Origin: Streptomyces tsukubensis
GTDB lineage: Bacteria; Actinomycetota; Actinomycetes; Streptomycetales; Streptomycetaceae
Length of the DNA: 64,000 nucleotides
Assembly (NCBI RefSeq): GCF_009296025.1
Contig: NZ_CP045178.1
Coordinates: 5,394,001-5,458,000 of the forward strand
Direction of reading: 5' to 3'
Below the pieces are notes generated by a model. That model was not told where the DNA came from. It did no database searches and saw only the letters and a list, made by a program, of their open reading frames with translations. The position numbers were made by a program, and so were the translations under genes. Shown piece after piece: positions 47,464 to 64,000 of the stretch. Position 1 is the first letter of the stretch; each line of letters opens with the position of its first letter.

Positions 47464-48567
47464 TCAGCCCAGCCGGTCCAGCCACTCGGCCAGTTCGCCT
47501 GCCGTCTCCTCCGTGCCCGCCCAGCCGACGTAACCGTCGGGGCGGATGAGGAAAAGCCCCTCGCCGTACGGTTCGTACGCCGGGACGCGGACCGTTCGCA
47601 CAGCGCCGGAAGCGGCGCCCGGTACCGACCGGGGTGGCCGCGTCGCGACAGCGAGCAGGGTCAGGTGCGGGCCCCTGAACGCGTCGAAGAGTCTGACCCC
47701 GCCGGGGCTGCCGTCCGGGGCGCGGTCACCCGCACGCAGCGCCCCCTCGGGCAGCTCCTTCCTGGTCTCCCGGGACAGGGACGAAGCACGGTAGCCGAGC
47801 CCGAGCTGGCGGGTGGCCGCACCACGCTTCGCCTCGCCCCGGTGGATACGGGTCGACAGGTCCAGCATCTCCGCCGCGTATCGCAGCCGTTCCTCCTCGT
47901 AGGTGTCGAGCAGCGTTTCGGCGGCAGCGGCCTTCGATCCGCTGCCGGCCTCCACCGCGTCCCGGGACCTCGACATGCCCCCCGCCTCCCGTGCGGCCGC
48001 CTCGGCCCTCAGCGCGGCGCCGAGCTTCCAGCCCAGGTTGTAGGCGTCCTGCACGCTGGTGTTGAGCCCCTGGCCGCCCGCCGGTGAGTGGACGTGCGCC
48101 GCGTCGCCCGCGAGGAACACCCGGCCCACCCGGAACCGTTGGGCCAGCGCCGCCCGCGCCGTGAAGTCCGAGGCCCACCTGACCTCCGTCACGTCCTCGG
48201 CCGCGAGATGGGTGCGGGCCGCCACGACCTCGCGTACGGCGTCCGGCGAGGTGTCGGGAGAACCGCCGGGCAACTGCGCGACCAACTGGATGTCCTCCGT
48301 ACCCGGCAGCGGGCACATCGACGTGAAGCCCTCGCCCTCGGCCCGCGGCGGGAACAGGTGCCAGTTGTCCCTGTCCAGCGAGGGGACGCGTACATCCGCC
48401 ACCAGGATCGGCGCGGGGTCCACCGTCTCGCCCTCCATGGCCACGCCCAGCAGCCGGCGCACGGTACTGCGCCCGCCGTCCGCCGCGACCGCAGGTCCCG
48501 CAGATCCCACCGGCCTCCCCGGCCTCCCCGGCGGCGCGTGCCCGCCGGGAAAGCCGTCCCGCGTCAC
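47464..48567 (-). pseudogene. FAD-dependent aromatic monooxygenase, N-terminal part missing
   Basis: The 367-residue frame contains the second half of a PheA/TfdB-type hydroxylase: VAADGGRSTVRRLLG, then RVGRVFLAGDAAHVHSPAGG with QGLNTSVQDAYNLGWKLGA, and a C-terminal thioredoxin-like domain (LFLIRPDGYVGWAG). The N-terminal GxGxxG nucleotide-binding half, normally about 160 residues, is absent; only 25 residues of unrelated Pro/Gly-rich sequence precede. Without it the enzyme cannot bind FAD normally. Repeats lie just upstream (48599-48661), consistent with a deletion. Confidence 0.75.
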
Positions 48568-48598
48568 GGAGCGGAGTTCCCGGCGGCGCGTGCCCGCC

Positions 48599-48661
48599 CC
48601 GCGCCTCAGCGCACGGCCTCCCCGCGCCTCAGCGCATGCCCGCCCCGCGCCTCAGCGCGCC
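48599..48661. repeat. 23-bp tandem repeat at the monooxygenase/glycosyltransferase boundary
   Basis: CCGCGCCTCAGCGCA-type units of 23 bases occur at 48599-48621 and 48622-48644, with a partial third copy at 48645-48661 that runs into the end of the next gene. A GGCGGCGCGTGCCCGCC motif is also repeated nearby (about 48530 and 48581). Confidence 0.75.
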
Positions 48662-50097
48662 GCCGCCGCGCGCCGCAACGACCGGGCGCGCCTGGCGACT
48701 TTCCTGATCGTCGCGTTGCGCGGAATGAAGGCGAGCTGCGGGGGAAGGCCGCCCGGCAGGGCGAGTGAGGTGAGCCTGCGCCGTTTGAAGTACCGCAGGG
48801 TGGCGGCGTCCGGCTGCGGGGAGAGAAAGCGTTCCGCCTCCGCGCGCAGCCCCGGATAGATCTTCGGCTGCATCGCGAAACCCACCGCCCGTACCAGCGC
48901 GCCAAGATGCTCTGCCGCCCCGCCCCGCCGCTGTTCCTCGACGGCCGCGCGGTCCGTCAGCTCGGGCACCAGCACGTCGACGATGGTCACGGGCACCCGG
49001 TTGCTGTTCTCGTACGGGGCGAGCCGTTCCAGTAGGAGCCGCGTACCGACGCGCGCGACCGGCAGGCCGTAGAAGGCGGACGCGGTCAGCAGCGCGGTGG
49101 AGAAGCACCCGACGACGAGGGCGGGCCTGGCCCGCTGGTAGAGCACCTCGGCGAGTACGGGTTCGTCCCGTACCGTCAGCCGCGCGCCGAGCCGTTCCGC
49201 CTCCTCCTCCAACGCCTTCGACCAGTGGGCGGGGGCCGTGGGATGCGGTTTGAAGACGAGGTGGCGGTGGCCGAGCGCCACCGCCCCCCGCACCATCCGC
49301 AGGTGCAGCTCCTCCTCCTCTTCCTGGGTGAGGATGGCGAGGGCCGACAGGTACTGGCCGAGCAGCAGGACCGGCGCCTCGTCGCCCGCACCCGTCGCTC
49401 GCGGGGCGTGCCCGTCCGAAAGGCTGGACCCACTTGCCCCGCTCGTCCCGCCCGTCCTGCTCGTCCCACCCGTCCAGTCCGTTCCGACCGTGGCCTCCTC
49501 CCCGTCCGCCGCCTCCGCCAGCTCCGCGAGGACCTTCAGGAAGACCTCGCTGGGCACCAGTTCGCCGCTCACCCCGAACTCCGTGAGCAGCATGGGCGTG
49601 AGCCCCGGCACCAGGTCGAGGTGGAGCAGTCGCCGTACGCGGGTGCCGACCAGCGGGTCGATCTTGCTGCGGGTCGGGCCGTAACTCATCAGCCCGTCCG
49701 CGTAGACGTCCACGGGCGCGCCCAGGAAGATCTGCGCGAGGGCGAGCGCCGGGTTGACCTGGATCGACTCGACGGTCAGCTCCAGATCGTCGTCGCCGAG
49801 CCGCCACAGCATCCGCAGATAGCGCTCCCACAGCGGCAGGTCGTTGCCGCGCGGGGACCAGCCGCCGGGGTGGAAGGGCGCGATGGCCTCGTTCCACGAC
49901 ACGACCTCGTCGAACCGGTCCCGCAGCCGCTCGAAACCGGCCATGGTGTCGACGGCGGGGGTCGTCTCGGGGGTGGCCGCGTTGTTGGCCACGATCAGAA
50001 CGCGCCGGTCGGCGGGGGTGAACAGCTCCGCGTCGAGGGCCGCGGCGAGTGTCGCCGTGCCGTAGAGCGTGGAGGCGAGGAAGAGCCGCGTGGTCAC
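48652..50097 (-). CDS. polysialyltransferase-like glycosyltransferase
   Basis: 481 residues, ATG overlapping the stop of the upstream GT2 gene (ATGA). N-terminus RLFLASTLYGTATLAAALDA starts a GT-B-like fold. VDVYADGLMSYGP (D134-G135) and VFKPHPT (KPHP 283-286) correspond to the acidic-Gly and HP motifs of bacterial poly- and oligosialyltransferases; CFSTALLTA could be the Ser/Thr motif. A Gly/Thr-rich insertion (about 205-240) interrupts the middle. It would transfer a CMP-activated nonulosonate in the cytoplasm. Context with neuA/neuB-type genes supports this. Confidence 0.78.
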   Translation of the reverse strand: MTTRLFLASTLYGTATLAAALDAELFTPADRRVLIVANNAATPETTPAVDTMAGFERLRDRFDEVVSWNEAIAPFHPGGWSPRGNDLPLWERYLRMLWRLGDDDLELTVESIQVNPALALAQIFLGAPVDVYADGLMSYGPTRSKIDPLVGTRVRRLLHLDLVPGLTPMLLTEFGVSGELVPSEVFLKVLAELAEAADGEEATVGTDWTGGTSRTGGTSGASGSSLSDGHAPRATGAGDEAPVLLLGQYLSALAILTQEEEEELHLRMVRGAVALGHRHLVFKPHPTAPAHWSKALEEEAERLGARLTVRDEPVLAEVLYQRARPALVVGCFSTALLTASAFYGLPVARVGTRLLLERLAPYENSNRVPVTIVDVLVPELTDRAAVEEQRRGGAAEHLGALVRAVGFAMQPKIYPGLRAEAERFLSPQPDAATLRYFKRRRLTSLALPGGLPPQLAFIPRNATIRKVARRARSLRRAAAAR

Positions 50098-51071
50098 GCC
50101 GCCACCCCCGCGCCGCCCGGCAGCCTGCGCAGTCGCCGCAGCCGGCTCGATCGTTCGAGGTCCATCGAGTCCAGGGCCTCGTCGAGGACGCCCTGCGGCA
50201 TGCGTTTCAGCGCCGCCGCGCTCATGGACTTCAGCGTGCGGGCCACGGGGGGTTCGAACCTCTCGATGGAGTTGAGGTGGTGCGAGATGATCGCGCAGTA
50301 CGTGCGGACGGCCTTCGGCAGCAGCGTCGCCGCGTCCCTGTCGGCGGCGGTCTCCCGTACCACCTGGTCGAAGGCGCGGATGAAGTCGAGCTGGCGGACG
50401 TCACCGATCTGCGTGAGGGACGAGGCCACCCCCCGCCGGTAGAAGACGCCGAGCAGCCCCACCACGGCGAAGGACTCCGCGGTGCGGTGCAGCTGCCAGA
50501 TCCACGGCCGGTCCTCCGCCGTACGCAGACCGTCGGTGAAGCGCAGCACACCCGCGTCGAGAAGTCTGCGGTGGTAGATCCCCGCCCAGGCGAAGGCGTA
50601 GTCCACCGAGGTGGACCGGTCCGCGGGGAGTATCGAGTCGCGCGGCGAGAGCACCACGGAGCGCCGCCCCTCGGGCACCCGGTGCACCGAACGGGCCCGC
50701 CCCGTGCACTGCACGTGGTCGGTGCGGACGAAGTCGCAGCCCAGTCCCCGCGCGACGGCGAGGAGTTCGGGGAAGTAGCCGGGGGCCACCCAGTCGTCGC
50801 CGTCGAGGAACGTCAGGTACTCACCGCGCGCCGCGTCGATTCCGGTATTGCGCGCGGTGGCGAGTCCGCCGTTGCTCTCGTGCGTGATGAGGACCGCGCC
50901 CGGCAATTCGCGGGCCGCGCGCCTGAGAATGTCAGGGGTCCCGTCCTTCGAACAGTCGTCGACGAGAATGAATTCAATCTCGTCGTGGGTGTTCGCGCGG
51001 AGACTTCGCAAAGTGTCGGGCGCGTACTGCCGCACGTTGTAGAACGGCACGATGACGGAGAGCTTGACCAC
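50094..51071 (-). CDS. family 2 glycosyltransferase
   Basis: 325 residues. GT-A enzyme: KLSVIVPFYNVRQYAPDTLR opens the nucleotide-sugar fold, IEFILVDDCSKDGT follows, and YLTFLDGDDWVAPGYF holds the DxD-type metal site. RTAEDRPWIWQLH includes the ED pair typical of the catalytic base. It is the first gene of the leftward branch of the nonulosonate polymer cluster and overlaps the polysialyltransferase-like gene by four bases. It probably adds a second sugar to the same polymer. Confidence 0.88.
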   Translation of the reverse strand: MVKLSVIVPFYNVRQYAPDTLRSLRANTHDEIEFILVDDCSKDGTPDILRRAARELPGAVLITHESNGGLATARNTGIDAARGEYLTFLDGDDWVAPGYFPELLAVARGLGCDFVRTDHVQCTGRARSVHRVPEGRRSVVLSPRDSILPADRSTSVDYAFAWAGIYHRRLLDAGVLRFTDGLRTAEDRPWIWQLHRTAESFAVVGLLGVFYRRGVASSLTQIGDVRQLDFIRAFDQVVRETAADRDAATLLPKAVRTYCAIISHHLNSIERFEPPVARTLKSMSAAALKRMPQGVLDEALDSMDLERSSRLRRLRRLPGGAGVAA

Positions 51072-51255
51072 CCGGGTGACGTTAGGCGGCCCCGCGTCCC
51101 AGGTCTTGACCCACGGCAGGACGGCGGGTGAACGGAATGTGGCGGGATGGTTAACCCACCCCGCGGAAAAGTCGAGGCGGGCCGATTCGCCATTCTGCGG
51201 CTCTCTGTTAACCCGCTGTTGCCCTCTCGTTGGGCCGCCAATCGGAATGCCTTTC

Positions 51256-51268
51256 TAGCGTCTTCCAT
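51256..51268 (+). promoter_or_regulatory. candidate promoter of the rightward nonulosonate operon, leaderless transcript
   Basis: TAGCGT (51256-51261) is a good actinobacterial -10 box, with TTGGGC (51230-51235) as a poor, widely spaced -35. The expected start site coincides with the GTG at 51269, which has no ribosome binding site. This fits a leaderless mRNA. Confidence 0.35.
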
Positions 51269-52690
51269 GTGCCAGCAAGTACCACGAACGCAGCGCGGGT
51301 CGCCGTACTCGCCGACTCGGACACCCGGTGGAAGTGGGGTGCGCTCACCGCGCGCCGTATCGCCCCTGACCGTGAGGAACAACAGCTCGACGGTTTTCTG
51401 CTGCGCGGCAGGGCCACCCCCACTCCGCGCCAGCTCCAGGAGATCGGCGTCCGCGCCGGATCACTGAGCGAGGTCACCGCCGTCGAGTTCCTGCGCCACA
51501 TGGAACGCGAGGACGCCCCCTACGACCTCGTGGTGCTCGCCCTCGTCGGCGGCGGCGTCCAGGCCCTGCTGCACGGCCTCGCGCGAGTGTGGGAGGGCCG
51601 CCCCCGGCGTCCCGTCGTCGTCACCGGCTATGTCGGGGTCGTCTACGAGAAGCTGGCCGACGGACTGCTCCTGCGGCACGGAGCCGACCTCGTCCTCGCC
51701 AACTCCCGCCAGGACGCCGAGCGGTTCCGCGGAGTGTACGAAGGGGTCGGAGCCGACCCGGCGGCCGTCACCGAGTGCGCCCTGCCGTTCCTCGACGGGG
51801 CGGCCGGGCGAACGGCCAAGGCCACGGCCGACGCCACGGCCGCAGACGCCGCCGACGCCACGGCCCATGCCGCACCCACCGACGCGGCGGACCCCGCGAC
51901 CCCCGCGTCCCCGGCAACCCCCACCACCCCCCTCACCGTCGTCTTCGCCGTCCAGCCCTCCGTGCCGGAGTCCCGCGCCGACCGCGTCTACCTGCTGCGG
52001 CGCGCCATCGCCCACGCGGGGCTGCACCCGGACCGCGAGGTCCTGGTGAAGCTGCGCAGCCGGCCCGGCGAGCACACCACGCACATCGAGGAGCACCCGT
52101 ACCAGAGGCTCGTCAGGACCGAGCGGACGCCCGACAACTTCCGCCTCGTCTACGGGCACATGGGCGAGGTCCTCGACCGGGCGGGGCTGCTCGTGACCGT
52201 CAGTTCGACGGCCGCCCTCGAATCGCTGCACCGCTCCATCCCCACCGCGGTCCTCACCGACCTCGGCATCCGCGAGCCGCTCGGCAACCACCACTTCATC
52301 GGCTCCGGCTGCCTCGCCTCCTGGAACCAGCTCGACGCGGGCCTCCTGCCCACCGCGGACCCCGCCTGGACCGCCCGCCAAGGGGTCGCCGCCGACCGGC
52401 CCTACGAGTCCTCCTTCGACACGGCACGCGCCCGGGTCGAAGAACTGCTCGCCGCCCCCTCGCTCGCCCCCGTCGAGCCGTACTACACCACCGTCACGGC
52501 CCCCGGTTACCTGCCTGGCATCCTCGCCCGCCACCACCTGGGGCCCGACGGCACCCCGCTGCCCGGCGCCGCCGCGGCGAGCGTCGAGCCGGGCCCGGTG
52601 CGCCAGGCCGTACGGCACGCGGCGCGCGGCGCCTACCGGCACGGCGTGCAGCGCGTGGCGCCCGTCATCCGGCGGATGGGCGGGCTGTGA
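51269..52690 (+). CDS. DUF6716-type putative glycosyltransferase
   Basis: 473 residues from the GTG at 51269 (VPASTTNAARVAVLADSDTR); no ribosome binding site is visible. The fold looks GT-B-like: RVAVLADSDTRWKWGALTAR at the N-terminus, RPVVVTGYVGVVYEKLADGL in the first half, and EEHPY (HP at 276-277) and LLVTVSSTAALES (SST 312-314) in the second, which resemble the HP and S-S/T motifs of bacterial sialyltransferases. An Ala/Thr/Pro-rich insert spans about 180-220. The stop overlaps the GTG of the CMP-sugar synthetase gene. Confidence 0.72.
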   Translation: MPASTTNAARVAVLADSDTRWKWGALTARRIAPDREEQQLDGFLLRGRATPTPRQLQEIGVRAGSLSEVTAVEFLRHMEREDAPYDLVVLALVGGGVQALLHGLARVWEGRPRRPVVVTGYVGVVYEKLADGLLLRHGADLVLANSRQDAERFRGVYEGVGADPAAVTECALPFLDGAAGRTAKATADATAADAADATAHAAPTDAADPATPASPATPTTPLTVVFAVQPSVPESRADRVYLLRRAIAHAGLHPDREVLVKLRSRPGEHTTHIEEHPYQRLVRTERTPDNFRLVYGHMGEVLDRAGLLVTVSSTAALESLHRSIPTAVLTDLGIREPLGNHHFIGSGCLASWNQLDAGLLPTADPAWTARQGVAADRPYESSFDTARARVEELLAAPSLAPVEPYYTTVTAPGYLPGILARHHLGPDGTPLPGAAAASVEPGPVRQAVRHAARGAYRHGVQRVAPVIRRMGGL

Positions 52691-54198
52691 CCTCACTGAA
52701 CGGCCTGCGGGCCATCACCGGCCGGGGCGGCAAGGCCGCCCGTGACCTGACCGCTTCGACCGCCCGGACCATCACCGGGTCCCCACGAGGAGCAGCACCC
52801 ATGATCCAGCAGGAGGACAGGAAGCCCACCCCGGTGCCCCGTGTGCTCGCGGTGATCCCCGCGCGCGGCGGCTCCAAGGGTGTGCCGGCCAAGAACCTCG
52901 CGCCGGTCGGCGGCGTACCGCTCGTGACACGGGCCGTACGCGAATGCCTCGCCGCCCGGCTGGTGACCGATGTCGTCGTCTCCACGGACGACGCCGCCAT
53001 CGCCGCCGCGGCCAGGGAGGCCGGTGGCGAGGCGGTGCGGCGCCCCGCCGACATCGCGGGCGACCTCGCCACCAGCGAAGCGGCCGTACTGCACGCCCTC
53101 GACTCCCACGAATCGCTGCACGGCCCCTTCGACGCCGTACTGCTCGTCCAGTGCACCAGCCCCTTCCTGGTCCGCGAGGACATAGACGGAGTGGCCGCCG
53201 CGGTCGTCGAGGACGGCGCGGACACCGCGCTGACCGTCGCCCCCTTCCACGGTTTCGTCTGGCGGGACGCGGAGGACGGGGCGGGCGCGGACGGCGGGGA
53301 GCTGAGCCGGGGCGTCAACCACGACAAGGCGTACCGCCCGCGCCGCCAGGACCGCCCCCAGGACCTGCTGGAGACCGGCGCCGCCTACGCGATGGACGCC
53401 GCCGGATTCCGTAAGCACCAGCACCGGTTCTTCGGCCGTACGGAGCTGGTGCGCACCGACCCCGCTCGGGTCCTGGAGATCGACGACCCGCACGACCTCT
53501 CCCGCGCCCGCGCCCTCGCGCCCCTCTTCGACAGCGTGCGCCCCGGCGCACTGCCCACCAGGGCCGACATCGACGCCGTCGTACTCGACTTCGACGGGAC
53601 CCAGACCGACGACCGGGTCCTGATCGACTCGGACGGCCGCGAACTGGTGGCCGTCCACCGCGGCGACGGGCTCGGCGTGGCCGCCCTGCGCAAGGCGGGC
53701 CTGCCGCTGCTGATCCTCTCCACGGAGCGGAACCCGGTGGTCGCCGCCCGCGCGCACAAACTCCGCATCCCCGTACTGCACGGCATCGACCGCAAGGACG
53801 AGGCCCTGAAGCAGTGGTGCGAGGAACAGGGCATCGCCCCCGAGCGGGTCCTCTATGTCGGCAACGACGTCAACGACCTGCCGTGTTTCGGGCTCGTCGG
53901 CTGGCCCGTCGCGGTCGCCGGTGCCCACGACGTCGTACGCGGCGCCGCGCGGGCCGTCACCTCACGCCCTGGCGGCGAAGGCGCGATCAGGGAGATCGCC
54001 TCCTGGATCCTCGGGCCTTCACTGGAGGGCCCGGCACCGGAGGCAGCCCCGCCATTGGGGGACCCGTCACTGAAGACCCCGCCGCTGGAGGGCTCCCCCC
54101 GGGAGCGCCCGTCCCTTGAGGACGCGCCGCCGCAGGACCGTCGGTCCGCGCACCCCACCCGCACCCGCACCCCCGTACCGCACGAGCAGCTCTCCTGA
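52687..54198 (+). CDS. CMP-nonulosonate synthetase fused to KdsC-like HAD phosphatase domain
   Basis: 503 residues from the GTG at 52687, which overlaps the previous stop; the ATG at 52801 (MIQQEDRK), eight bases after GAGGAG, is a strong alternative and would give 465. The first domain is an acylneuraminate cytidylyltransferase: VIPARGGSKGVPAKNLAPVG and LVQCTSPFLVREDIDG. The second is a type-C0 HAD domain: VVLDFDGTQTDD (D301, D303), LILSTERN, DRKDEALKQW and YVGNDVNDLP (D394). It should dephosphorylate a nonulosonate 9-phosphate and then activate it with CTP. The last 70 residues are Pro-rich. Confidence 0.88.
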   Translation: MTSLNGLRAITGRGGKAARDLTASTARTITGSPRGAAPMIQQEDRKPTPVPRVLAVIPARGGSKGVPAKNLAPVGGVPLVTRAVRECLAARLVTDVVVSTDDAAIAAAAREAGGEAVRRPADIAGDLATSEAAVLHALDSHESLHGPFDAVLLVQCTSPFLVREDIDGVAAAVVEDGADTALTVAPFHGFVWRDAEDGAGADGGELSRGVNHDKAYRPRRQDRPQDLLETGAAYAMDAAGFRKHQHRFFGRTELVRTDPARVLEIDDPHDLSRARALAPLFDSVRPGALPTRADIDAVVLDFDGTQTDDRVLIDSDGRELVAVHRGDGLGVAALRKAGLPLLILSTERNPVVAARAHKLRIPVLHGIDRKDEALKQWCEEQGIAPERVLYVGNDVNDLPCFGLVGWPVAVAGAHDVVRGAARAVTSRPGGEGAIREIASWILGPSLEGPAPEAAPPLGDPSLKTPPLEGSPRERPSLEDAPPQDRRSAHPTRTRTPVPHEQLS

Positions 54199-54239
54199 CC
54201 CGAACCCGAAGCCGAACCCGAGCACCTCAATACCCCAGC

Positions 54240-54300
54240 GCCTCCCCCCCCCGCATCCCCAACACCCCCAACACCCCCAGCACCCCCAACACCCCAACAT
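54240..54300. repeat. C-rich tandem repeat upstream of neuB
   Basis: CCCCCAACA-type nonamers repeat four to five times with a C8 run at 54246-54253. All C is on the plus strand, all G on the minus strand. It fills the 120-base gap before the neuB-like gene. Confidence 0.75.
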
Positions 54301-54318
54301 CTAAGGAATCCCCACATC

Positions 54319-55278
54319 ATGAGCACGCACCAGCACCCCACCGGCCGGCTGCGCACCTTCGGATCGCGTACCGCGGGCCCCGGCCACCCCGTCTACATCA
54401 CGGGCGAGATCGGCATCAACCACAACGGCGAGCTGGACAACGCCATCGCGCTGATCGACGTGGCAGCCGACGCCGGCTGTGACGCCGTGAAGTTCCAGAA
54501 GCGCACCCCGGAGATCTGCACCCCGCGCGACCAGTGGGACATCGAGCGCGACACCCCCTGGGGCCGGATGACGTACATCGACTACCGCCACCGCGTCGAG
54601 TTCGGCGAGGACGAGTACCGCGCCATCTCCGACCACTGCGCCAAGCGCGGCATCGACTGGTTCGCCTCTCCGTGGGACACCGAGGCCGTCACCTTCCTGG
54701 AGAAGTTCGACGTCCCCGCCCACAAGGTGGCCTCCGCCTCCCTCACCGACGACGAACTGCTGCGCGCGCTGCGTGCCACGGGTCGTACCGTCATCCTCTC
54801 CACCGGCATGTCGACCCCGCGCCAGATCCGGCACGCGGTCGAGGTCCTCGGCAGTGACAACATCCTGCTCTGCCACGCGACCTCCACCTACCCGGCCAAG
54901 GCCGAGGAGCTGAACCTCCGGGTGATCAACACCCTTCAGGCCGAGTTCCCGAACGTGCCCATCGGCTACTCGGGCCACGAGACCGGCCTCCAGACCACCC
55001 TCGCCGCCGTCGCCCTCGGCGCCACCTTCGTCGAGCGCCACATCACCCTGGACCGCGCGATGTGGGGCTCCGACCAGGCCGCTTCCGTCGAACCGCAGGG
55101 CCTCCAGCGCCTCGTACGCGACATCCGCACCATCGAGGCGTCCCTCGGCGACGGCGTCAAGAAGGTCTACGAGTCGGAGCTGGGCCCGATGAAGAAGCTC
55201 CGCCGTGTGCCCGGTGTCGTCGCGGAAGAGGCCGCGGGGAACACCGCCACCGACGGCCGCGAGCCGGTCGCGGTCTGA
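54319..55278 (+). CDS. NeuB-type nonulosonic acid synthase lacking the SAF domain
   Basis: 319 residues. Condenses phosphoenolpyruvate with a hexose or N-acetylhexosamine to a nine-carbon acid. TIM-barrel motifs: ITGEIGINHNGELDNA, AVKFQKRTPE, VILSTGMSTPRQIRHA, LLCHATSTYPA, IGYSGHETGLQTT and VERHITLDR. NeuB proteins normally have about 345 residues and end in an antifreeze-like SAF domain that closes the partner's active site; here only about 34 residues follow the barrel (GPMKKLRRVPG and an Ala-rich tail). Third gene of the rightward branch. Confidence 0.9.
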   Translation: MSTHQHPTGRLRTFGSRTAGPGHPVYITGEIGINHNGELDNAIALIDVAADAGCDAVKFQKRTPEICTPRDQWDIERDTPWGRMTYIDYRHRVEFGEDEYRAISDHCAKRGIDWFASPWDTEAVTFLEKFDVPAHKVASASLTDDELLRALRATGRTVILSTGMSTPRQIRHAVEVLGSDNILLCHATSTYPAKAEELNLRVINTLQAEFPNVPIGYSGHETGLQTTLAAVALGATFVERHITLDRAMWGSDQAASVEPQGLQRLVRDIRTIEASLGDGVKKVYESELGPMKKLRRVPGVVAEEAAGNTATDGREPVAV

Positions 55279-55307
55279 GCGGCGACCGGGACCCGGCGAA
55301 CAGGACG

Positions 55308-56537
55308 ATGAACACCAGCGCGAGGGCCGAGCGGCCCACCCCGGGCGCGGCGGCGCTCCGTATCCGCCGCCGCGCCCGGCTGACGGGCGCCGACGCGCAG
55401 CCGTTGCCCGCCCACACCCCGACCGTCGCCTTCGTGGAGAGCCCGGTGCAGCTCCTCAACGTCCTGGAATGGGCGTACGGACGGCGGCGGGACCGGCAGG
55501 ACCAGCAGCACAGGCAGCTGGAGAACAGCGGCCCCGCTGCGGCGCGGGAGACCCTCGCGCCCGACAGTCTCACCCTCGTGGTGCTCTCGCCCACCGATCC
55601 GATGTCCCGCGGCCAGCTCCGGCGGATGGCGGAGCTGGCCAGGGACGAGGGCATGCGGGTGCGCTGGGAGGAGGCCCGTGGCGGGGCCGCGGCGCCCCTG
55701 CACACCGTGCGCGGACTCGCTCCGCTGCTCAGGGGCGCCCGCCGAATCGTCATAGGTGACCCGTTCTCGCGGTACGTGCAGCTGCTGCTGACCATCACCC
55801 GCGCCCGTGACCTGGTCGTCGTGGACGACGGCACGGCCACCATGGAGTTCATCGGCCAACTCTCCCGGGGGGAGCGCCTGGTGCGCTGGCACCGGGGCGG
55901 TGGCAGGCCGGGCGCCCGCGATCTGGTCTTCGCGCCGGTCGCCGCCTCCGCACGCCGCAGGCTCACCCCTGGCGAGCGCGGGAGCGTCGAGGTGTTCTCC
56001 TCGATGCCCATCGACCCCGCGCCGGAAGGCGTCACGATCACCGCCAACGACTTCGCCTGGACCAGGGCCCGCTTCGGACCGCCGAACGTCGGCGACCACG
56101 CGGACCTGGTGGGTACCTCGCTGGTCGAGACGGGGGTGGTCGACGAGGACCACTACGTGACAGCCGTCCGCGCGCTGACCGAGGCCCATGGCGCCACCCG
56201 CTACTTCGCGCACCGCAGGGAGAGTTCCACCAAACTGCACCGCCTCGCCGTCGAGACGGGGCTCCAGGTCGTCCGCCCCGACCTGCCGCTCGAACTCATC
56301 GCCCGCAGAGGCCCGGTGGGCCGTACGGTCCTGAGCTTCCCCTCCACCGTCGTGCACACCCTGCCGCTGGCCCTCGCGGGGACCGGGGTCCGGGTGGCCG
56401 TCTGCGACATCGACCCCGCCTGGCTGACCGCCAACGCCTCACCTCGCGCCCAGGGATTCCTCTCCGGAGTCACCGGAACAGCCAGGGACGTGCACCGGCT
56501 GACATCGATCAGCACCCGGTTCGGCACCACCGCGTAG
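55308..56537 (+). CDS. putative sialyltransferase-like protein (GT52-type features)
   Basis: 409 residues from the ATG at 55308, preceded by AGGA. After a basic 35-residue lead, VAFVESPVQLLNVLEWAYG resembles the start of GT52 sialyltransferases. LVVVDDGTATMEF (D173-D174-G175), AHRRES (about 301-306) and FPST (344-347) match the order of acidic-Gly, His and Ser-Ser/Thr motifs in bacterial sialyltransferase families. A charged stretch (RRRDRQDQQHRQ) lies near 60. Last gene of the rightward branch; acceptor and linkage are unknown. Confidence 0.7.
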   Translation: MNTSARAERPTPGAAALRIRRRARLTGADAQPLPAHTPTVAFVESPVQLLNVLEWAYGRRRDRQDQQHRQLENSGPAAARETLAPDSLTLVVLSPTDPMSRGQLRRMAELARDEGMRVRWEEARGGAAAPLHTVRGLAPLLRGARRIVIGDPFSRYVQLLLTITRARDLVVVDDGTATMEFIGQLSRGERLVRWHRGGGRPGARDLVFAPVAASARRRLTPGERGSVEVFSSMPIDPAPEGVTITANDFAWTRARFGPPNVGDHADLVGTSLVETGVVDEDHYVTAVRALTEAHGATRYFAHRRESSTKLHRLAVETGLQVVRPDLPLELIARRGPVGRTVLSFPSTVVHTLPLALAGTGVRVAVCDIDPAWLTANASPRAQGFLSGVTGTARDVHRLTSISTRFGTTA

Positions 56538-56752: not shown

Positions 56753-58018
56753 GTGAACCTAGTGACACCCCGCGACCCCGAGACCCTCGCAGAGCCGATC
56801 CCGGCGGAGCCCTCGCCAGGAGCCGCTCTCCCCGGCGCGCTGACCGACATGCCGCCCGGTCTCGCCGCCGAGCTGACCGCCTTCAGGCGTGATCTGCACA
56901 TGCACCCGGAGCTGGGAAACCAGGAGTTCCGTACGACCGAGGCCATCAAGGCCCGGCTCGAAGAGGCCGGACTCGCACCGCGCGTACTCGCCATCGGCAC
57001 CGGGCTCGTCTGCGACATCGGCGACAGGGACGCCGAGGGCGTACGGCCGATGCTCGCCCTGCGCGGCGACATCGACGCCCTGCCGATCCCCGACACCAAG
57101 ACCGGCACGGCGTACCGCTCCACGGCCCCCGGACGCGCACACGCCTGCGGCCACGACGTGCACGCCACCGTGGTCCTCGGGGCCGGCCTCGTCCTCGCCG
57201 ACCTCGACCGGCGTGGGCTGCTGCCCAACCCGGTACGGCTGATCTTCCAGCCGGCCGAGGAGGTGCTGCCCGGCGGCGCGCCCGACACGATCCAGGCGGG
57301 CGTACTCGAAGGCGTGGGCAGGATCATCGCGCTGCACTGCGACCCGAAGGTCGACGCGGGCAGGATCGGCCTGCGCCACGGCCCGATCACCTCCGCCTGC
57401 GACCGGCTGGAGATCGTCCTGGGCGGTCCTGGCGGGCACACCGCGCGCCCGCACCTCACCACCGATCTGGTGACGGCCGCGGCCAAGGTCGCCACCGACG
57501 TTCCCGCGCTGGTCTCCCGCCGCGTCGACGCCCGCTCGGGACTCGCCGTGACCTGGGGGAGGATCGAGTCGGGCCACGCCTGCAACGTCGTACCGCAACA
57601 CGCCGAACTGTCCGGCACCGTGCGCTGCCTCGACCTGGACGCCTGGCGGCTCGCGCCCGACCTGGTGCACGGGGCCGTCACCGAGATCGCCGATCTCCAC
57701 CGCGCCAAAGCGGAGATCAACTACATCAAGGGCGTACCGCCCGTCGTCAACGAGCCCGCCACGACGGAGCTGTTGCGGGAGGCGATGACGGCCAGGCGTG
57801 GCGCCGCCTCCATCGAGGACACGGAACAGAGCCTCGGCGGCGAGGACTTCTCCTGGTACCTGGAGCAGGTGCCGGGGGCGATGGTCAGGCTCGGGGTGCG
57901 CAGGCCGGGCGACCGCGTCGCCAGGGACCTGCACCGGGGCGACTTCGACGTGGACGAGAGCGCCATCGCGGTCGGCGTGGAACTGTTCACCGCTGCGGCC
58001 CTGCTCGACGTGGGCTGA
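56753..58018 (+). CDS. M20-family amidohydrolase
   Basis: 421 residues from the GTG at 56753. Zinc-dependent aminoacylase/hippurate hydrolase-type enzyme removing acyl groups from amino compounds. Metal and catalytic motifs: LRGDIDALP, HACGHDVHATV, FQPAEEVLPGG, ALHCDPKVDAG and SLGGEDFSWYLE. The lid domain starts at VLGGPGGHTARPHL. It precedes the BmpA genes on the same strand, an arrangement suggesting use of an imported nucleoside-derived or N-acyl compound, although substrate is unknown. The first 40 residues are Pro/Ala-rich. Confidence 0.88.
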   Translation: MNLVTPRDPETLAEPIPAEPSPGAALPGALTDMPPGLAAELTAFRRDLHMHPELGNQEFRTTEAIKARLEEAGLAPRVLAIGTGLVCDIGDRDAEGVRPMLALRGDIDALPIPDTKTGTAYRSTAPGRAHACGHDVHATVVLGAGLVLADLDRRGLLPNPVRLIFQPAEEVLPGGAPDTIQAGVLEGVGRIIALHCDPKVDAGRIGLRHGPITSACDRLEIVLGGPGGHTARPHLTTDLVTAAAKVATDVPALVSRRVDARSGLAVTWGRIESGHACNVVPQHAELSGTVRCLDLDAWRLAPDLVHGAVTEIADLHRAKAEINYIKGVPPVVNEPATTELLREAMTARRGAASIEDTEQSLGGEDFSWYLEQVPGAMVRLGVRRPGDRVARDLHRGDFDVDESAIAVGVELFTAAALLDVG

Positions 58019-58214
58019 GCGGTCGCGGGGCGCCCCACTGCACCCGTCGAGGGCCCCATTGGCCCCCGTTCGTCGCACTGGTTCACCGGTACGTAACGGG
58101 GGCCCGGCACGAATCGATAACAGCCGGGCCCGTGGGGCGTGCCCGCCCTTCTGCGCGCGTACTGTGCGGCGCACACCAGCGCCCCAACAGCGCCACGGAG
58201 AAGGGGGGTTCCCC

Positions 58215-58598
58215 GTGCGATCCATACCGAGGATGTCCCGCGCGGCAGCCGTGCCCGCCACCCTGGCGCTGGCGGCGACCGCGTGCGGCGAGACCAGCGA
58301 CGAGTCCGCGGAGAAGGGTGACTCGGACTCGTCCGCCACTTCCGGCTACCACGGCAAGGGCGTCGGGCTCGCCTACGACATCGGCGGCAAGGGTGACCAG
58401 TCGTTCAACGACGCCGCCTTCCACGAGGTGGCGCGGCGCGGCGGGGAAGGCGCGGTGGCGGGGTGGGGACGGCGGCACGGCGGGGTGGGGACGGCGGCAC
58501 GGCGGGGTGGGGGGAGGGGTGGCGTGAAACGGCCCCGTCGCGCCACCCGTGCGACCGGGTGTGCGCGACCGGTGACGGTCTCAGGCACAGCTCGATAA
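58215..58598 (+). pseudogene. truncated BmpA-family lipoprotein (first of two paralogues)
   Basis: From the GTG at 58215 the frame encodes a signal peptide with lipobox LAATAC, a Ser/Asp-rich linker, and KGVGLAYDIGGKGDQSFNDA, nearly the same as the start of the intact copy (KGLAIAYDVGGKGDQSFNDA, from 58694). After AFHEVARR the similarity ends abruptly in a Gly/Arg tail of 127 residues total. The join is made of a 22-bp repeat. About 270 residues of the binding fold are missing. Confidence 0.85.
58457..58513. repeat. 22-bp tandem repeat at the bmpA truncation point
   Basis: GGCGGGGTGGGGACGGCGGC plus AC occurs at 58457-58478 and 58479-58500, with a partial third copy. It begins within 20 bases of where homology to BmpA is lost. 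Confidence 0.85.
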
Positions 58599-58693
58599 CG
58601 GGTGGACATACAGGGTTTTATGTTTTGTCTACGCGCGTTACGCTGCGGCGAAATCTGCGCCATGTAGGGCGCATGCACAAAGGAGTTCTCCCC

Positions 58694-59746
58694 ATGCGCC
58701 GCGTGTCCCGTATAGCGATTGCAGGCGTTGCGACCGCCGCTCTGGCTGCTTCCGTCTCCGCCTGTGGCGGTACTTCGAGTGATGCCTCCGCCAAGGACGG
58801 CAACAAGGACAAGGGCCTCGCCATCGCCTACGACGTGGGCGGCAAGGGCGACCAGTCCTTCAACGACGCCGCGTACGCCGGTATGAAGCGGGCCGAGAAG
58901 AAGTTCGGCATCGGCGGCAAGGCGCTGGAGCCGAGTGACGGCGAGTCCGACGCCGACAAGACCCAGCGCCTGACCGAGCTGGCCAAGCAGGGTTACAACC
59001 CGGTGATCGGCATCGGGTACGCGTACGCTCCCGCGATCAAGGAGACGGCGGCGAAGTTCCCGAAGACCTCCTTCGGCATCGTGGACGACTCCACCGTCAA
59101 GGCCGACAACGTCGCCTCCCTCGTCTTCAGCGAGCAGGAAGTCTCCTACCTGGCCGGCGTGGCGGCGGCGAAGACCAGCAAGGCCAAGCACGTGGGCTTC
59201 GTCGGTGGTGTGGATGTGCCGTTGATCCACAAGTTCGAGGCCGGGTTCGTGCAGGGCGTGAAGTCGGTCGACCCGAAGATCAAGATCGAGAAGCAGTATC
59301 TGACGGAGAAGGCGGAGGACGGCGGTTTCGCCAGCCCCAACCTCGGCAAGGAAGCGGCCAACGGCCAGATCGACTCCGGCGCGGACGTCGTCTACCACGC
59401 GGCGGGGCTGTCGGGTCAGGGCGTCATCGAGGCGGCGGCGAGCGCCAAGAAGTGGGCGATCGGCGTCGACTCCGACCAGTACGAGCAGAAGGCCCTCGCC
59501 AAGTACAAGGACCACATCCTGACCTCGGCCACCAAGGACGTGTCCGGAGCCGTGTTCAACCTGGTGAAGTCGGTCCAGGACGACAAGCCGGAGTCCGGCG
59601 TCATCCGCGCGGACCTCGCCTCGGGCGGCGTCGCGCTGGCCGACTCCAACCCTGACTTCGCCAAGGACACCGCGGTGCAGAAGGCCGTCGAGCAGGCCAA
59701 GAAGGACATCATCGGCGGAAAGATCAAGGTCAAGAGCACGTCCTGA
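58694..59746 (+). CDS. BmpA/PnrA-type nucleoside-binding lipoprotein
   Basis: 350 residues from the ATG at 58694, eight bases after AAAGGAG. Lipobox in LAASVSAC. The periplasmic-binding fold of the basic membrane protein family is complete: AYDVGGKGDQSFNDAAYAGM, YNPVIGIGYAYAPAIK, FGIVDDS, FSEQEVSYLAGVAAA, VGFVGGVDVPLIHKFEAGF and VVYHAAGLSGQGVIEA. Relatives bind purine nucleosides for ABC import. It serves the ATPase and permeases that follow, and a hairpin (59754-59784) separates it from them. Confidence 0.93.
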   Translation: MRRVSRIAIAGVATAALAASVSACGGTSSDASAKDGNKDKGLAIAYDVGGKGDQSFNDAAYAGMKRAEKKFGIGGKALEPSDGESDADKTQRLTELAKQGYNPVIGIGYAYAPAIKETAAKFPKTSFGIVDDSTVKADNVASLVFSEQEVSYLAGVAAAKTSKAKHVGFVGGVDVPLIHKFEAGFVQGVKSVDPKIKIEKQYLTEKAEDGGFASPNLGKEAANGQIDSGADVVYHAAGLSGQGVIEAAASAKKWAIGVDSDQYEQKALAKYKDHILTSATKDVSGAVFNLVKSVQDDKPESGVIRADLASGGVALADSNPDFAKDTAVQKAVEQAKKDIIGGKIKVKSTS

Positions 59747-59753
59747 ACGCGCG

Positions 59754-59784
59754 GGCCCGAGCCGCCGAGGTGACGGCTCGGGCC
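59754..59784 (+). terminator. hairpin between the binding-protein and ATPase genes
   Basis: GGCCCGAGCCG (59754-59764) and CGGCTCGGGCC (59774-59784) form a perfect 11-bp stem with a nine-base loop. Partial termination here would keep binding protein in excess over the membrane components. Confidence 0.65.
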
Positions 59785-60222
59785 GGCGTTCGACGCGGGC
59801 TTTCCTCGGCTGCGTATCGATCCGGCTGACCGCCGGGCCGTCCGATCACCGGGCAACCCGCGATCTCCCGGGCGGCCGGGCGGGCAGCCTGCCGGTCGGA
59901 ACCAGCCGGGCAGGCAGACAGCCGGACAGCCCGCCGGTCGGACAACCAGCCGGGCAGACGGCCAGACAGTCAGCCGGCCAGACAGTCAGCCGGTCGGACG
60001 TCCAGTCGGCAGGCGGAGAGACAGACCGGGTCCGGAACCCCCTCCGTGGGGGCGTCCGGACCCGGAGCCGGACTCGGACGCGTCGCGTGCGGTGCGGCGT
60101 CCGGGGTCAGGCCACGAGTCGGGCCGTACCGGGCCGACCCCAACTGAACGGGCCCCCACCAGGGCCCCCGCATCCGGGACGCCGACACCTACGGGCGGCC
60201 CCCCTTCCGAGGAGAATGCGCC
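59785..60222. other. intergenic region with CAGCCGG repeats
   Basis: About 440 bases with no gene. From 59885 to 60010 it contains imperfect units around CAGCCGG and CAGACAGTCAGCCGG (two nearly exact copies near 59960-60000). A further GC-rich inverted segment surrounds 60035-60070. The ATPase ribosome binding site is at 60209-60214. Confidence 0.55.
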
Positions 60223-61872
60223 ATCAACGCGTCCAGCAGCCCTCCGGCCGACGGTCAGGCGCCCGCTGTCGAACTGTCGGGCATCACCAAGCGCTTCCCC
60301 GGCGTCGTCGCCAACCACGACATCCACCTCTCCGTACGCAAGGGCAGTGTGCACGCCCTGGTCGGTGAGAACGGCGCGGGAAAGTCGACGCTGATGAAGA
60401 TCCTCTACGGCATGCAGAAGCCGGACGAGGGCACCATCACGGTCGACGGCACGACCGCGGTGTTCGGCTCCCCGGCCGACGCCATCAGCCGCGGTATCGG
60501 CATGGTGCACCAGCACTTCATGCTCGCCGACAACCTGACGGTCCTGGAGAACACGGTGCTCGGCAGCGAGAAGCTGCACGGCATCGGCGGCGCGGCCCGC
60601 CGCAGGATCAAGGAGATCTCCGACCGGTACGGTCTCGGCGTCCGCCCCGACGCGCGCGTCGAGGACCTCGGCGTCGCCGACCGCCAGCGCGTGGAGATCC
60701 TCAAGGTCCTCTACCGCGGCGCCACCACCCTCATCCTGGACGAACCCACCGCCGTACTCGTCCCGCAGGAGGTGGACGCCCTCTTCGGCAACCTCCGCGA
60801 GCTGAAGGCGGAGGGGCTCAGCGTCATCTTCATCTCCCACAAACTGGGCGAAGTCCTCTCCGTCGCCGACGACATCACCGTCATCAGGCGCGGTACGACA
60901 GTGGGCACCGCCATCCCGTCCGAGACCACCCCCCGCCAGCTCGCCGAGCTGATGGTGGGCAGCGAGCTCCCGACACCGGAGACGGCCGAGTCGACCGTCA
61001 CCGAGCGGGCGCTGCTCCAGGTCGAGGGGCTCAAGCTGCTCGCCGACGGCGGGCGCCCGCTCCTCGACGACATCTCCTTCACCATCCACGAGGGCGAAGT
61101 CCTCGGTATCGCGGGCGTCGAGGGCAACGGCCAGACCGAACTGGTCGACGCCCTCATCGGCCTCAAGGGCGCCGACTCGGGCACGATCGTCCTCGCGGAC
61201 GAGGAGATCACCGGCTGGGCCACGCGCAGGCGCCGCGAGAAAGGCGTCGGCTACATCCCCGAGGACCGCCACAGGCACGGCCTGCTGCTTGACTCCCCCC
61301 TCTGGGAGAACCGCATCCTCGGCCACGTCACCGAGCGCCCCAACTCCAGCGGCTTCTGGCTCACCCCGGGGCCTGCCCAGGACGACACCCGCCGCATCGT
61401 CGAGGAGTACGACGTCCGTACGCCCGGTATCGACGTCACCGCCGGGTCGCTCTCCGGCGGCAACCAGCAGAAGCTGATCGTCGGCCGCGAGATGAGCCAC
61501 AAGCCGCGCTTCCTGATCGCCGCGCACCCCACGAGGGGCGTGGACGTCGGCGCGCAGGCCCAGATCTGGGACCAGATCCGCGAGGCGCGGCGCGAAGGCC
61601 TCGCCGTACTGCTGATCTCCGCCGACCTGGACGAGCTGATCGGCCTCTCCGACACGCTCAGGGTCATCTACCGGGGCCGGCTGGTCGCGGACGCCGACCC
61701 GGCGACGATCACCCCCGAGGAACTGGGCTCGGCGATGACGGGCGCGGCGACCGGGCATCTGGAGCAGCACGCGCCGGCACCCCAGGCCGCTGAAGGGGAG
61801 GACCTGGACGACCCGGCCGTTCCAGCCCCTCGTACAGGTACCGCAGATGAGCCGGAGGGCGAGGCCCGATGA
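60223..61872 (+). CDS. nucleoside-type ABC transporter ATPase (two ABC domains), apparent ATC start
   Basis: 549 residues if initiated at the ATC at 60223, eight bases after GAGGAG. No ATG, GTG or TTG lies in frame between the upstream stop (60145) and GTG 60349; starting there would begin at VHALVGENGAGKST and lose the first strand and A-loop (ITKRFPGV). Two ABC domains: the first with GENGAGKST, LGVADRQRVEILKVL and LILDEPT; the second with VEGNGQTE in place of a normal Walker A and LSGGNQQKLIVGRE. Such asymmetry is usual in RbsA/YufO-type ATPases. It overlaps the permease gene (ATGA). Confidence 0.9.
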   Translation: MNASSSPPADGQAPAVELSGITKRFPGVVANHDIHLSVRKGSVHALVGENGAGKSTLMKILYGMQKPDEGTITVDGTTAVFGSPADAISRGIGMVHQHFMLADNLTVLENTVLGSEKLHGIGGAARRRIKEISDRYGLGVRPDARVEDLGVADRQRVEILKVLYRGATTLILDEPTAVLVPQEVDALFGNLRELKAEGLSVIFISHKLGEVLSVADDITVIRRGTTVGTAIPSETTPRQLAELMVGSELPTPETAESTVTERALLQVEGLKLLADGGRPLLDDISFTIHEGEVLGIAGVEGNGQTELVDALIGLKGADSGTIVLADEEITGWATRRRREKGVGYIPEDRHRHGLLLDSPLWENRILGHVTERPNSSGFWLTPGPAQDDTRRIVEEYDVRTPGIDVTAGSLSGGNQQKLIVGREMSHKPRFLIAAHPTRGVDVGAQAQIWDQIREARREGLAVLLISADLDELIGLSDTLRVIYRGRLVADADPATITPEELGSAMTGAATGHLEQHAPAPQAAEGEDLDDPAVPAPRTGTADEPEGEAR

Positions 61873-62990
61873 AGAAGTTCGACAGGGAACGGGTGCTGCT
61901 GGGGGTGGCCGGACCGGTCATCGCCCTGGTGGCGGCCGTGGTCCTCACCTCGGTCGTACTGCTCGCCTCGGGGAAGAACCCCGTCGAGCCGTATTCGCTC
62001 ATGTTCGAGCAGGCCACCTTCTCCGACGTCCAGGTCCTGATCGTCAACCAGGCGGCCATGTACTACCTGGCCGCCCTCGCGGTGGCCGTCGGGTTCCGGA
62101 TGAACCTGTTCAACATCGGCGTCGACGGGCAGTACCGTCTCGCCGCCATGGTCACCGCCGTCGTCGGTACCTCGATCTCGCTGCCTTCCGCGCTCCAGAT
62201 CCCCGTACTGCTCATCGTCGCGGTTCTGACGGGCGCGTTCTGGTCAGGGATCGCGGGCGTACTGAAGACCACCCGCGGGGTGAGCGAGGTCGTCTCCACG
62301 ATCATGCTCAACTCCATCGCCACCAGCCTCATCGCCTGGCTCACCATCAACGACAACTTCGGCGTCCCCGTGGGCAACAACCAGACCACCGGCGTGATGG
62401 AGAAGTCCGGCTGGTTCCCCGGCATCGGCCTCGGTGACGCGGGCGAGATCTACGGTTTCGTCTTCATCTCCGCCCTGGCAGGCATCGTCTACTGGCTCGT
62501 CCTCGGCAGGACCCGCTTCGGCTTCGACCTGCGCGCCACCGGCGCCTCCGAGTCCGCCGCGGCGGCCAGCGGGGTCGACGCCAAGCGGATGGTCTTCACC
62601 TCGATGGTGATCTCCGGAGGTGTCGCGGGCCTCGCGGGCCTGCCGACCCTGCTCGGCGATGTCCACACCTACAGCCTCAGCTTCCCCACCGGACTCGGCT
62701 TCACCGGCATTACGATCGCCCTGCTCGGCCGTAACCACGCCGGGGGGATCGCCTTCGCGGCCTTGCTCATCGCCTTCCTCGACAAGGCGTCCCCGGCACT
62801 CGACTACGCCGGGTACGACAAGGAGATCGCGGTGATCATGCAGGGGCTGATCGTCATCGCGGTCGTCGTCAGCTACGAGGCCGTCAGGGTCTGGGGGCTC
62901 CGCCGCCAGCAGCAGCGCGTCGGCGCGGAACTCGCCGCCGCCCTCTCGCAGAACACCGATCACCCCCAGAAGGAGGCGGCTGCCCGATGA
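61869..62990 (+). CDS. nucleoside-type ABC transporter permease 1
   Basis: 373 residues, ATG overlapping the ATPase stop. About ten membrane segments of the BPD_transp_2 (branched-chain amino acid/sugar) type. FRMNLFNIGVDGQYRLAAM is the conserved first-loop motif, LKTTRGVSEVVSTIMLNSIA and FDLRATGASESAAAASGVDA follow, as in YufP/NupP proteins. It forms a heterodimer with the next permease. Its C-terminal tail is polar. Confidence 0.92.
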   Translation: MKKFDRERVLLGVAGPVIALVAAVVLTSVVLLASGKNPVEPYSLMFEQATFSDVQVLIVNQAAMYYLAALAVAVGFRMNLFNIGVDGQYRLAAMVTAVVGTSISLPSALQIPVLLIVAVLTGAFWSGIAGVLKTTRGVSEVVSTIMLNSIATSLIAWLTINDNFGVPVGNNQTTGVMEKSGWFPGIGLGDAGEIYGFVFISALAGIVYWLVLGRTRFGFDLRATGASESAAAASGVDAKRMVFTSMVISGGVAGLAGLPTLLGDVHTYSLSFPTGLGFTGITIALLGRNHAGGIAFAALLIAFLDKASPALDYAGYDKEIAVIMQGLIVIAVVVSYEAVRVWGLRRQQQRVGAELAAALSQNTDHPQKEAAAR

Positions 62991-64000
62991 CCACGGTCAC
63001 CGACGTCAACAAGGCGCAGGTACGGCCGGGGGGCGGGCGCCGCAAGCTGACCCTGCCCGTCCTGCTGTTGATCATCGCGGGGGTGCTGATCCTGATCTCC
63101 GTGGTCAGGATGGTCACCGGCGCCGACGGCATCACCTCCACCGGTCAGATGTCGGCCGCGCTGCGGCTCGCCGTCCCCATCGGCCTCGCGGGGCTCGGAG
63201 GTCTGTGGGCAGAACGGGCCGGAGTCGTCAACATCGGCCTGGAGGGCATGCTCATCCTGGGCACCTGGTTCGGCGCCTGGGCCGGGTACCAGTGGGGCCC
63301 CTGGAGCGGCATCCTCTTCGGCCTCATCGGCGGCGCGCTCGGCGGACTGCTGCACGCGATCGTCACTGTCACCTTCCAGGTGAACCACATCGTCTCGGGT
63401 GTGGCCCTCAACATCCTCGCGCTCGGCACCACCCGCTACCTGTCGACCTTCACCTTCGAGGGGGTCGAGGGCGGTACGTCCAAGCAGTCCCCGCCCATCG
63501 ACTCGCTGGGCACCTTCACCGTGCCAGGGCTCTCCGACGGTCTCCAGAGCCTCAACGACAAGGGCTGGTTCCTCGTCTCCGACCTCGCCGGACTCCTCGG
63601 CGGACTGTTCACCGACCTCTCGCCGCTCACCGTCATCGCCGTCGCGACGGTCCCGCTGAGCTGGTGGATCCTGTGGCGCACCAGTTTCGGGCTGCGGCTG
63701 CGCTCCTGCGGTGAGAACCCGGTCGCCGCCGAATCGCTCGGCGTCAACGTGTACAAGTACAAGTACCTCGCGGTGATCATCTCCGGCGGCTTCGCCGGTC
63801 TTGGCGGCGCCTTCCTCTCCCTGGTCTCCTCCAACATCTACCTGGAGGGACAGACCGGAGGCCGCGGCTACATCGGCCTGGCTGCCATGATCTTCGGCAA
63901 CTGGATGCCGGGTGGACTCGCCCTCGGCGCCGGGCTCTTCGGCTACACCGACAGCCTCAAGATCCGTGGCGGCGGCACCAACGTCCACGCGCTCCTGCTC
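62987..64000 (+). CDS. nucleoside-type ABC transporter permease 2 (3' partial)
   Basis: 338 residues visible, open at the right edge; ATG overlaps the previous stop (ATGA). ERAGVVNIGLEGMLILGTWF is the permease motif, VNHIVSGVALNILALGTTRY and LRLRSCGENPVAAESLGVNV follow, matching the YufQ/NupQ partner. An insert with FTFEGVEGGTSKQSPP faces outside. Together with BmpA, the ATPase and permease 1 it completes a nucleoside importer. Nucleoside-salvage genes would be expected downstream of the window. Confidence 0.92.
   Translation, partial: MTTVTDVNKAQVRPGGGRRKLTLPVLLLIIAGVLILISVVRMVTGADGITSTGQMSAALRLAVPIGLAGLGGLWAERAGVVNIGLEGMLILGTWFGAWAGYQWGPWSGILFGLIGGALGGLLHAIVTVTFQVNHIVSGVALNILALGTTRYLSTFTFEGVEGGTSKQSPPIDSLGTFTVPGLSDGLQSLNDKGWFLVSDLAGLLGGLFTDLSPLTVIAVATVPLSWWILWRTSFGLRLRSCGENPVAAESLGVNVYKYKYLAVIISGGFAGLGGAFLSLVSSNIYLEGQTGGRGYIGLAAMIFGNWMPGGLALGAGLFGYTDSLKIRGGGTNVHALLL

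What the first reader, a model, noticed from the sequence alone, without database searches (positions are those of the whole stretch)
48652..56537. Divergent cluster for a nonulosonic-acid (probably Kdn-type) surface polymer
Seen: six genes in two divergent operons around 51072-51268 encode a NeuB-type synthase, a CMP-nonulosonate synthetase with a HAD domain, one GT2 and three proteins with sialyltransferase-like motifs. No hexosamine 2-epimerase (NeuC), N-acyltransferase or aminotransferase is present. Known: S. coelicolor walls contain a Kdn-bearing teichulosonic acid. Inference: the cluster starts from a neutral hexose phosphate plus PEP, giving Kdn 9-phosphate, then Kdn, then CMP-Kdn, and builds a Kdn polymer. 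No dedicated polymer exporter is visible, so export is unexplained.
Basis: partly seen in the sequence, partly recalled or inferred. Interest (0 to 1): 0.8.

Follow-up and report, generated by a model that had tools for sequence, protein, structure and literature searches.

The report
Streptomyces Kdn cell-wall polymer genes
These six genes look like a soil bacterium's version of a published Streptomyces gene cluster that makes an acidic, phosphate-free cell-wall sugar polymer (containing the sialic acid Kdn) when phosphate runs short; the cluster is ordinary for the genus, though some of its enzymes are still uncharacterised.

The parts
48652..50097 (-). A: polysialyltransferase-type glycosyltransferase (PF07388), 481 aa; overlaps B's end by 4 nt; proposed CMP-Kdn transferase
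   Evidence: E 4.5e-30; HP-type motif: H285 in 69 of 72 and P286 in 72 of 72 Streptomyces hits covering it
50094..51071 (-). B: GT2 glycosyltransferase, 325 aa; proposed hexose (Gal-type) transferase
51116..51155 (-). PHO-box-like array facing operon B-A: 11-nt units with GTTCACC (51127-51133) and GTTAACC (51149-51155); the unit between them is degenerate
   Evidence: GTTCA[CT][ACT] on this strand somewhere in 74 of 74 intergenic regions; 3-unit score 16 of 21, reached by 0 of 300 shuffles
51207..51235 (+). PHO-box-like array facing operon C-F: GTTAACCCGCT / GTTGCCCTCTC / GTTGGGC, 11-nt period
   Evidence: GTT[AC]ACC in the distal part of 60 of 74 regions; the 2-unit score 11 of 14 is reached by 1.3% of shuffles
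51269..52690 (+). C: DUF6716 putative glycosyltransferase, 473 aa, probably GT-B; donor unknown
   Evidence: model pLDDT 60.7
52801..54198 (+). D: CMP-nonulosonate synthetase (N-terminal) fused to KdsC-type HAD phosphatase (C-terminal, residues about 249-410)
   Evidence: best PDB hit of N-terminal part 9t4z 'PpNeuA' E 2.7e-35; HAD part 3mmz E 1.8e-92
54319..55278 (+). E: NeuB-type PEP-condensing synthase, 319 aa, no SAF (antifreeze-like) domain; proposed Kdn-9-phosphate synthase
55308..56537 (+). F: GT-B glycosyltransferase resembling GT38 polysialyltransferase, 409 aa, no Pfam family; proposed CMP-Kdn transferase

Best explanation
This is the Streptomyces teichulosonic-acid cluster (counterpart of S. 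coelicolor SCO4877-4882). Under phosphate limitation PhoP binds the PHO boxes in the divergent promoter region and switches on both operons. E joins mannose 6-phosphate (from the housekeeping phosphomannose isomerase) to PEP giving Kdn 9-phosphate; the HAD half of D removes the phosphate; the N-terminal half of D makes CMP-Kdn. A and F are CMP-Kdn transferases, B (perhaps with C) adds a neutral hexose such as galactose, giving a phosphate-free Kdn-hexose chain. The chain leaves the cell through a shared TagGH-type ABC exporter encoded elsewhere and is joined to peptidoglycan by LCP ligases. Shown here: gene content, conservation, PHO-box-like footprint, no SAF domain, substrate-supply pattern, predicted fold of F, natural fusions. 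Inferred: the Kdn product in this strain, PhoP binding, which transferase adds what, exporter, ligase.
Against: This genome does carry NanE, so ManNAc-6-P is not excluded in this strain. E and both halves of D score below the NCBIfam equivalog cut-offs, the KDN-9-P phosphatase model included (78.5 against 180). S. coelicolor DNA was not compared, so orthology rests on order, product names and regulation; PMC8269224 labels the SCO4880 orthologue 'sialic acid synthase' where gene order predicts the CMP-synthetase. No sigma-70-type promoter or terminator was found. Foldseek by E-value ranks UDP-GlcNAc 2-epimerases first for F, and F has no sequence match in the PDB.
Confidence: 0.86

Rival explanations
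1. The synthase uses ManNAc-6-phosphate (made from GlcNAc-6-P by NanE) and the polymer holds Neu5Ac rather than Kdn.
Against: NanE lies in a DHDPS-family / ROK / NanE / MFS run that looks catabolic. It is over cut-off in only 26 of 139 synthase-bearing genomes, and 58 of 139 show none of three epimerase families. The printed Streptomyces polymer is Kdn.
Confidence: 0.06
2. Another nonulosonic acid (pseudaminic or legionaminic type) is made.
For: PseI and PseF models match E and D weakly.
Against: Far below their cut-offs (207.3 against 340.25; 97 against 205.7); no aminotransferase, N-acetyltransferase or dehydratase family hit among the six genes; the HAD fusion fits a 9-phosphate pathway.
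Confidence: 0.03
3. The genes make a short Kdn cap or decoration on another wall polymer, not a separate chain.
For: No exporter or ligase in the six genes; the polymer is described as only up to seven repeats.
Against: Four glycosyltransferase-like proteins, two of them polysialyltransferase-like; the S. coelicolor polymer is reported as a repeating-unit chain.
Confidence: 0.1
4. C is a UDP-GlcNAc 2-epimerase-like enzyme supplying an amino sugar rather than a glycosyltransferase.
Against: The GT-B fold is shared by both; no profile similarity to six Streptomyces epimerases (hhalign probability 0.1%); PF02350 not hit and not found in this genome; Pfam calls DUF6716 a putative glycosyltransferase.
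Confidence: 0.03

Closest known systems
S. coelicolor M145 teichulosonic-acid locus SCO4873-SCO4882 (core SCO4877-4882)
   Same: Matching product types in matching order (from papers), PhoP control, widespread in Streptomyces
   Different: S. coelicolor sequence not compared; here FAD-monooxygenase and LysE-type genes lie left of A, without the methyltransferase or acyltransferase neighbours seen in some relatives
Bacteroides thetaiotaomicron / Prymnesium parvum Kdn-9-P pathway
   Same: Synthase + 9-phosphatase + CMP-Kdn synthetase logic; the P. parvum synthase accepted only mannose 6-phosphate of seven sugars (PMC6200933, passages)
   Different: Here the phosphatase is fused to the CMP-synthetase; the product is thought to enter a wall polymer
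GT38 bacterial polysialyltransferase (PDB 5wc6/5wcn; family number recalled)
   Different: F has 14% identity, no Pfam family and no sequence match in the PDB; acceptor probably a Kdn-hexose chain
Bacillus subtilis teichuronic-acid switch (named in PMC8269224; gene names tuaA-H recalled)
   Same: Phosphate-free acidic wall polymer replacing teichoic acid at low phosphate
   Different: Uronic acid there, Kdn here; enzymes not compared

Membership tests
Streptomyces teichulosonic-acid (SCO4877-4882) cluster | NeuB-type synthase, CMP-synthetase and several glycosyltransferases in two divergent operons | tested here: met
Streptomyces teichulosonic-acid (SCO4877-4882) cluster | PHO-box repeats in the divergent promoter region | tested here: met
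   sequence footprint only; PhoP binding and expression not testable here
Streptomyces teichulosonic-acid (SCO4877-4882) cluster | Direct sequence orthology to the S. coelicolor genes | not tested
   S. coelicolor DNA is not among what I fetched; order and product names from papers only
Streptomyces teichulosonic-acid (SCO4877-4882) cluster | Kdn-containing wall polymer | not testable with these tools
   needs wall chemistry
NeuB family (PF03102) | NeuB barrel domain over gathering score | tested here: met
   275.3 bits against 22.1
N-acetylneuraminate synthase equivalog TIGR03569 | Score over curated cut-off | tested here: not met
   253.4 against 399.65; no SAF domain
NeuC-type sialic-acid route | UDP-GlcNAc 2-epimerase (PF02350) in the genome | tested here: not met
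   none in own genome
GT38 polysialyltransferase, protein A | PF07388 over gathering score | tested here: met
   105.7 against 23.3
GT38 polysialyltransferase, protein F | PF07388 or PDB sequence match | tested here: not met
GT38 polysialyltransferase, protein F | Same fold | tested here: met
GT38 polysialyltransferase, protein C | Same fold or profile similarity to A/F | tested here: inconclusive
   low-confidence GT-B-like model; no hhalign similarity
KDN-9-P phosphatase NF058599 | Score over curated cut-off | tested here: not met
   78.5 against 180; the works-like reading rests on HAD/KdsC class and fusion

The most novel reading that the evidence does not exclude
Actinobacteria hold a distinct Kdn machine: a SAF-less Kdn-9-P synthase clade, a synthetase-phosphatase fusion, and a polysialyltransferase-fold transferase family (F) that Pfam does not hold, whose members are sometimes fused to the CMP-Kdn synthetase, so that activating and polymerising Kdn are physically coupled. 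It reaches beyond Streptomyces (Microbacterium, Ilumatobacter).
Probability: 0.45. Interest if true: 0.5.

Novelty: already known. Interest (0 to 1): 0.3.

Why it matters
It ties an almost genus-wide Streptomyces gene cluster to a defined wall sugar and to phosphate starvation, a signal that also triggers antibiotic production in many species, and gives testable jobs to proteins annotated only as hypothetical (C, F). A SAF-less, mannose-6-phosphate-using synthase plus two CMP-Kdn transferases, if confirmed, would be useful for making Kdn glycans.

Tried and rejected
Structure of C: mean pLDDT 60.7, so its matches were used only to say GT-B-like. Profile comparisons of C with A, F and six Streptomyces 2-epimerases gave nothing; A against F gave a weak match over part of the C-terminal half with aligned HP/HR and S-T motifs (probability 6.7%, E 0.0054), too weak to count. 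Sequence search of F's profile against the PDB found only chance hits, and of A none. The sigma-70 promoter and terminator scan found none. The PHO-type pattern was written after seeing the site, so its exact match at 51207 is no independent evidence; over the whole window it gave 11 matches with up to 2 mismatches against 4.4 expected. Exporter near ten high-GC synthase loci outside Streptomyces (L124-L133, +/- about 9 kb, crude gene calling): an ABC-ATPase motif was flagged in 3 (L125, L128, L132); those of L125 and L128 resemble the ATPase at window 60349 (29% identity), and L133 has a weak hit to it too; the L132 one I read as SufC-like from its neighbours. The founding paper (Ostash 2014, 10.1007/s12223-014-0306-6) is not held, so its mutants were not read. 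In the supply test two weak NanE hits below cut-off (G410, G428) were dropped before the count of 26; weak and partial PF07221 hits were kept. Seven of 80 named loci (L003, L018, L028, L045, L049, L057, L076) gave no usable intergenic region and are not in the 74. Of 240 listed homologues of F 44 went into the F model; of 120 listed for C 24.

Full report
What is there. The window is Streptomyces DNA: the best 80 named loci for its protein E are all Streptomyces records or [Kitasatospora] papulosa, and 139 of 150 sampled genomes of the window's genus carry E. The six genes exist as described. B and A overlap by 4 nt and run left; C, D, E, F run right; 197 nt separate the two starts. D's start is uncertain (GTG 52687 or ATG 52801). 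Of 68 loci with 6.5 kb left of E's start and 2.5 kb right of it, a best-hit script found 62 canonical; in four others it had picked a second copy of B and/or A. A check by position gives 66 of 68; L045 and L057 fail.

What is already known. The S. coelicolor region SCO4873-4882 is called the teichulosonic-acid cell-wall cluster and a PhoP target (PMC13011467, passages), citing Ostash et al. 2014, which I could not read. SCO4876-4882 except SCO4877 rise when phosphate runs out (PMC2824715, passage); SCO4873 and SCO4877-4881 are listed under the phosphate starvation response (PMC2267785, passage); the S. lividans proteins SLI_5146-5156 rise in a phosphate-limited mutant (PMC8003754, passages); Planobispora rosea has orthologues with a Pho-like profile, there labelled teichuronic (PMC8269224, passages). 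The polymer is described as up to seven repeats of Gal and Kdn, often with GlcNAc or methyl (PMC11481543, PMC7831098, passages). Six genes of matching kind and order make the identification with SCO4877-4882 very probable, but I did not compare S. coelicolor DNA. One mismatch: PMC8269224 lists the SCO4880 orthologue as sialic acid synthase, whereas order would make SCO4881 the synthase.

Regulation. PMC7244524 (passage) takes a canonical Pho box as at least two direct repeats of GTTCACCC with 9 bp between the CA pairs. In the divergent gap, three 11-nt units on the minus strand score 16 of 21 against GTTCACC, the middle unit being poor; 0 of 300 shuffles reach that. The plus-strand pair scores 11 of 14, reached by 1.3% (mononucleotide shuffles). 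In 74 regions (73 named loci plus the window; 7 of 80 loci dropped) a minus-strand GTTCA[CT][ACT] is somewhere in 74 and a plus-strand GTT[AC]ACC in the distal part in 60. These are related species, so shared descent explains part of it; but the GGTGAAC block and the GTTaACC...GTTG...GTTGggC blocks stand out from poorly conserved surroundings in the alignment.

Which sugar. E is NeuB-type but 319 aa with no SAF hit; in 80 of 80 loci the distance from the GEIGINHNG motif to the stop is 275-298 codons, too short for one. In N. meningitidis NeuB the SAF domain helps recognise ManNAc (recalled, not tested), so its lack fits, but does not prove, a non-acetylated substrate; 6ncs, deposited as a sialic acid synthetase, is also only 290 aa. 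D joins a CMP-sugar synthetase to a KdsC-like phosphatase; the HAD half has a close solved relative, 3mmz, and the N-terminal half is nearest to 9t4z 'PpNeuA', whose organism the output does not name. Such a phosphatase fits a 9-phosphate route, as in the Kdn-9-P pathway of B. thetaiotaomicron and P. parvum, where the algal enzyme accepted only mannose 6-phosphate (PMC6200933, passages). Supply test over 150 Streptomyces genomes (printed handles agree between searches; rows without a match were partly not printed): synthase 139; among these NanE over cut-off 26, PF02350 53, PF07221 26, none of the three 58, phosphomannose isomerase 137. So amino-sugar supply does not track the synthase. Against this: the window's own genome has NanE, though beside DHDPS-family, ROK and MFS genes, like a sialic-acid catabolic operon; it has no PF02350 and no PF07221.

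Beyond Streptomyces. 24 of 396 genomes of the phylum have E at E <= 1e-60, ten of them of the window's genus. Of 15 loci from the other 14 genomes, 13 have a D-like and 7 a C-like hit within about 1.5 kb. In the Ilumatobacter fluminis record (L132; name from P0247) the run is F, C', E, D, C. Exporter: none in the cluster. The genome has 15 ABC-2 permease hits; I looked at the ORFs around all 15 and scanned two permease-ATPase pairs, one beside a CDP-glycerol transferase gene (C2 about 3.21 Mb), one near an Fe-ADH-type gene (about 7.33 Mb). Calling them TagGH-like is my reading; they are candidates, nothing more.

Variation. Left of A the flank varies between species: a Methyltransf_24 gene in 14 of 71 regions, an acyltransferase of one type in 24 and of another in 7, a large protein with a pyruvyl-transferase domain in 16 (the 71 count the window, where none of these was found; the gene caller misses genes, E itself being called in only 60, so these are lower bounds). 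This fits species-specific decoration of a common core chain (inference).

Verdict. What remains open is which transferase does what, and export.

Noticed in passing
window 47464-48567 (-): FAD-dependent aromatic monooxygenase-type gene matching the FAD_binding_3 profile only from position 154 onward; the L062 relative is called as 465 aa, so this copy looks shortened at its N-terminus.
   Followed up: partly
window 48594-48674: 23-nt tandem repeat (3.5 copies) spanning the end of gene A and the gap after it.
   Followed up: no
L109 6609-10729 (own genome C2 about 405.6-409.7 kb): Apparent sialic-acid catabolic operon: DHDPS-family, ROK kinase, NanE, MFS transporter.
   Followed up: partly
L137 9328-11037 (-) and L136 (one unnamed Streptomyces, G352): Two synthase copies in one genome, with no HAD motif (DFDG[TV]) found at either; in L137 synthetase and NeuB lie in one open frame of 569 aa. 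Named locus L042 also lacks the HAD motif.
   Followed up: partly
L058, L060, L064, L066 left flank: Second diverged copy of gene B (all four) and of gene A (three of four) near the canonical pair.
   Followed up: partly
window 56753-63999: Right flank conserved: M20 amidohydrolase in 67, lipoprotein-type 58463 gene in 65 and ABC ATPase 60349 in 61 of 80 loci.
   Followed up: no
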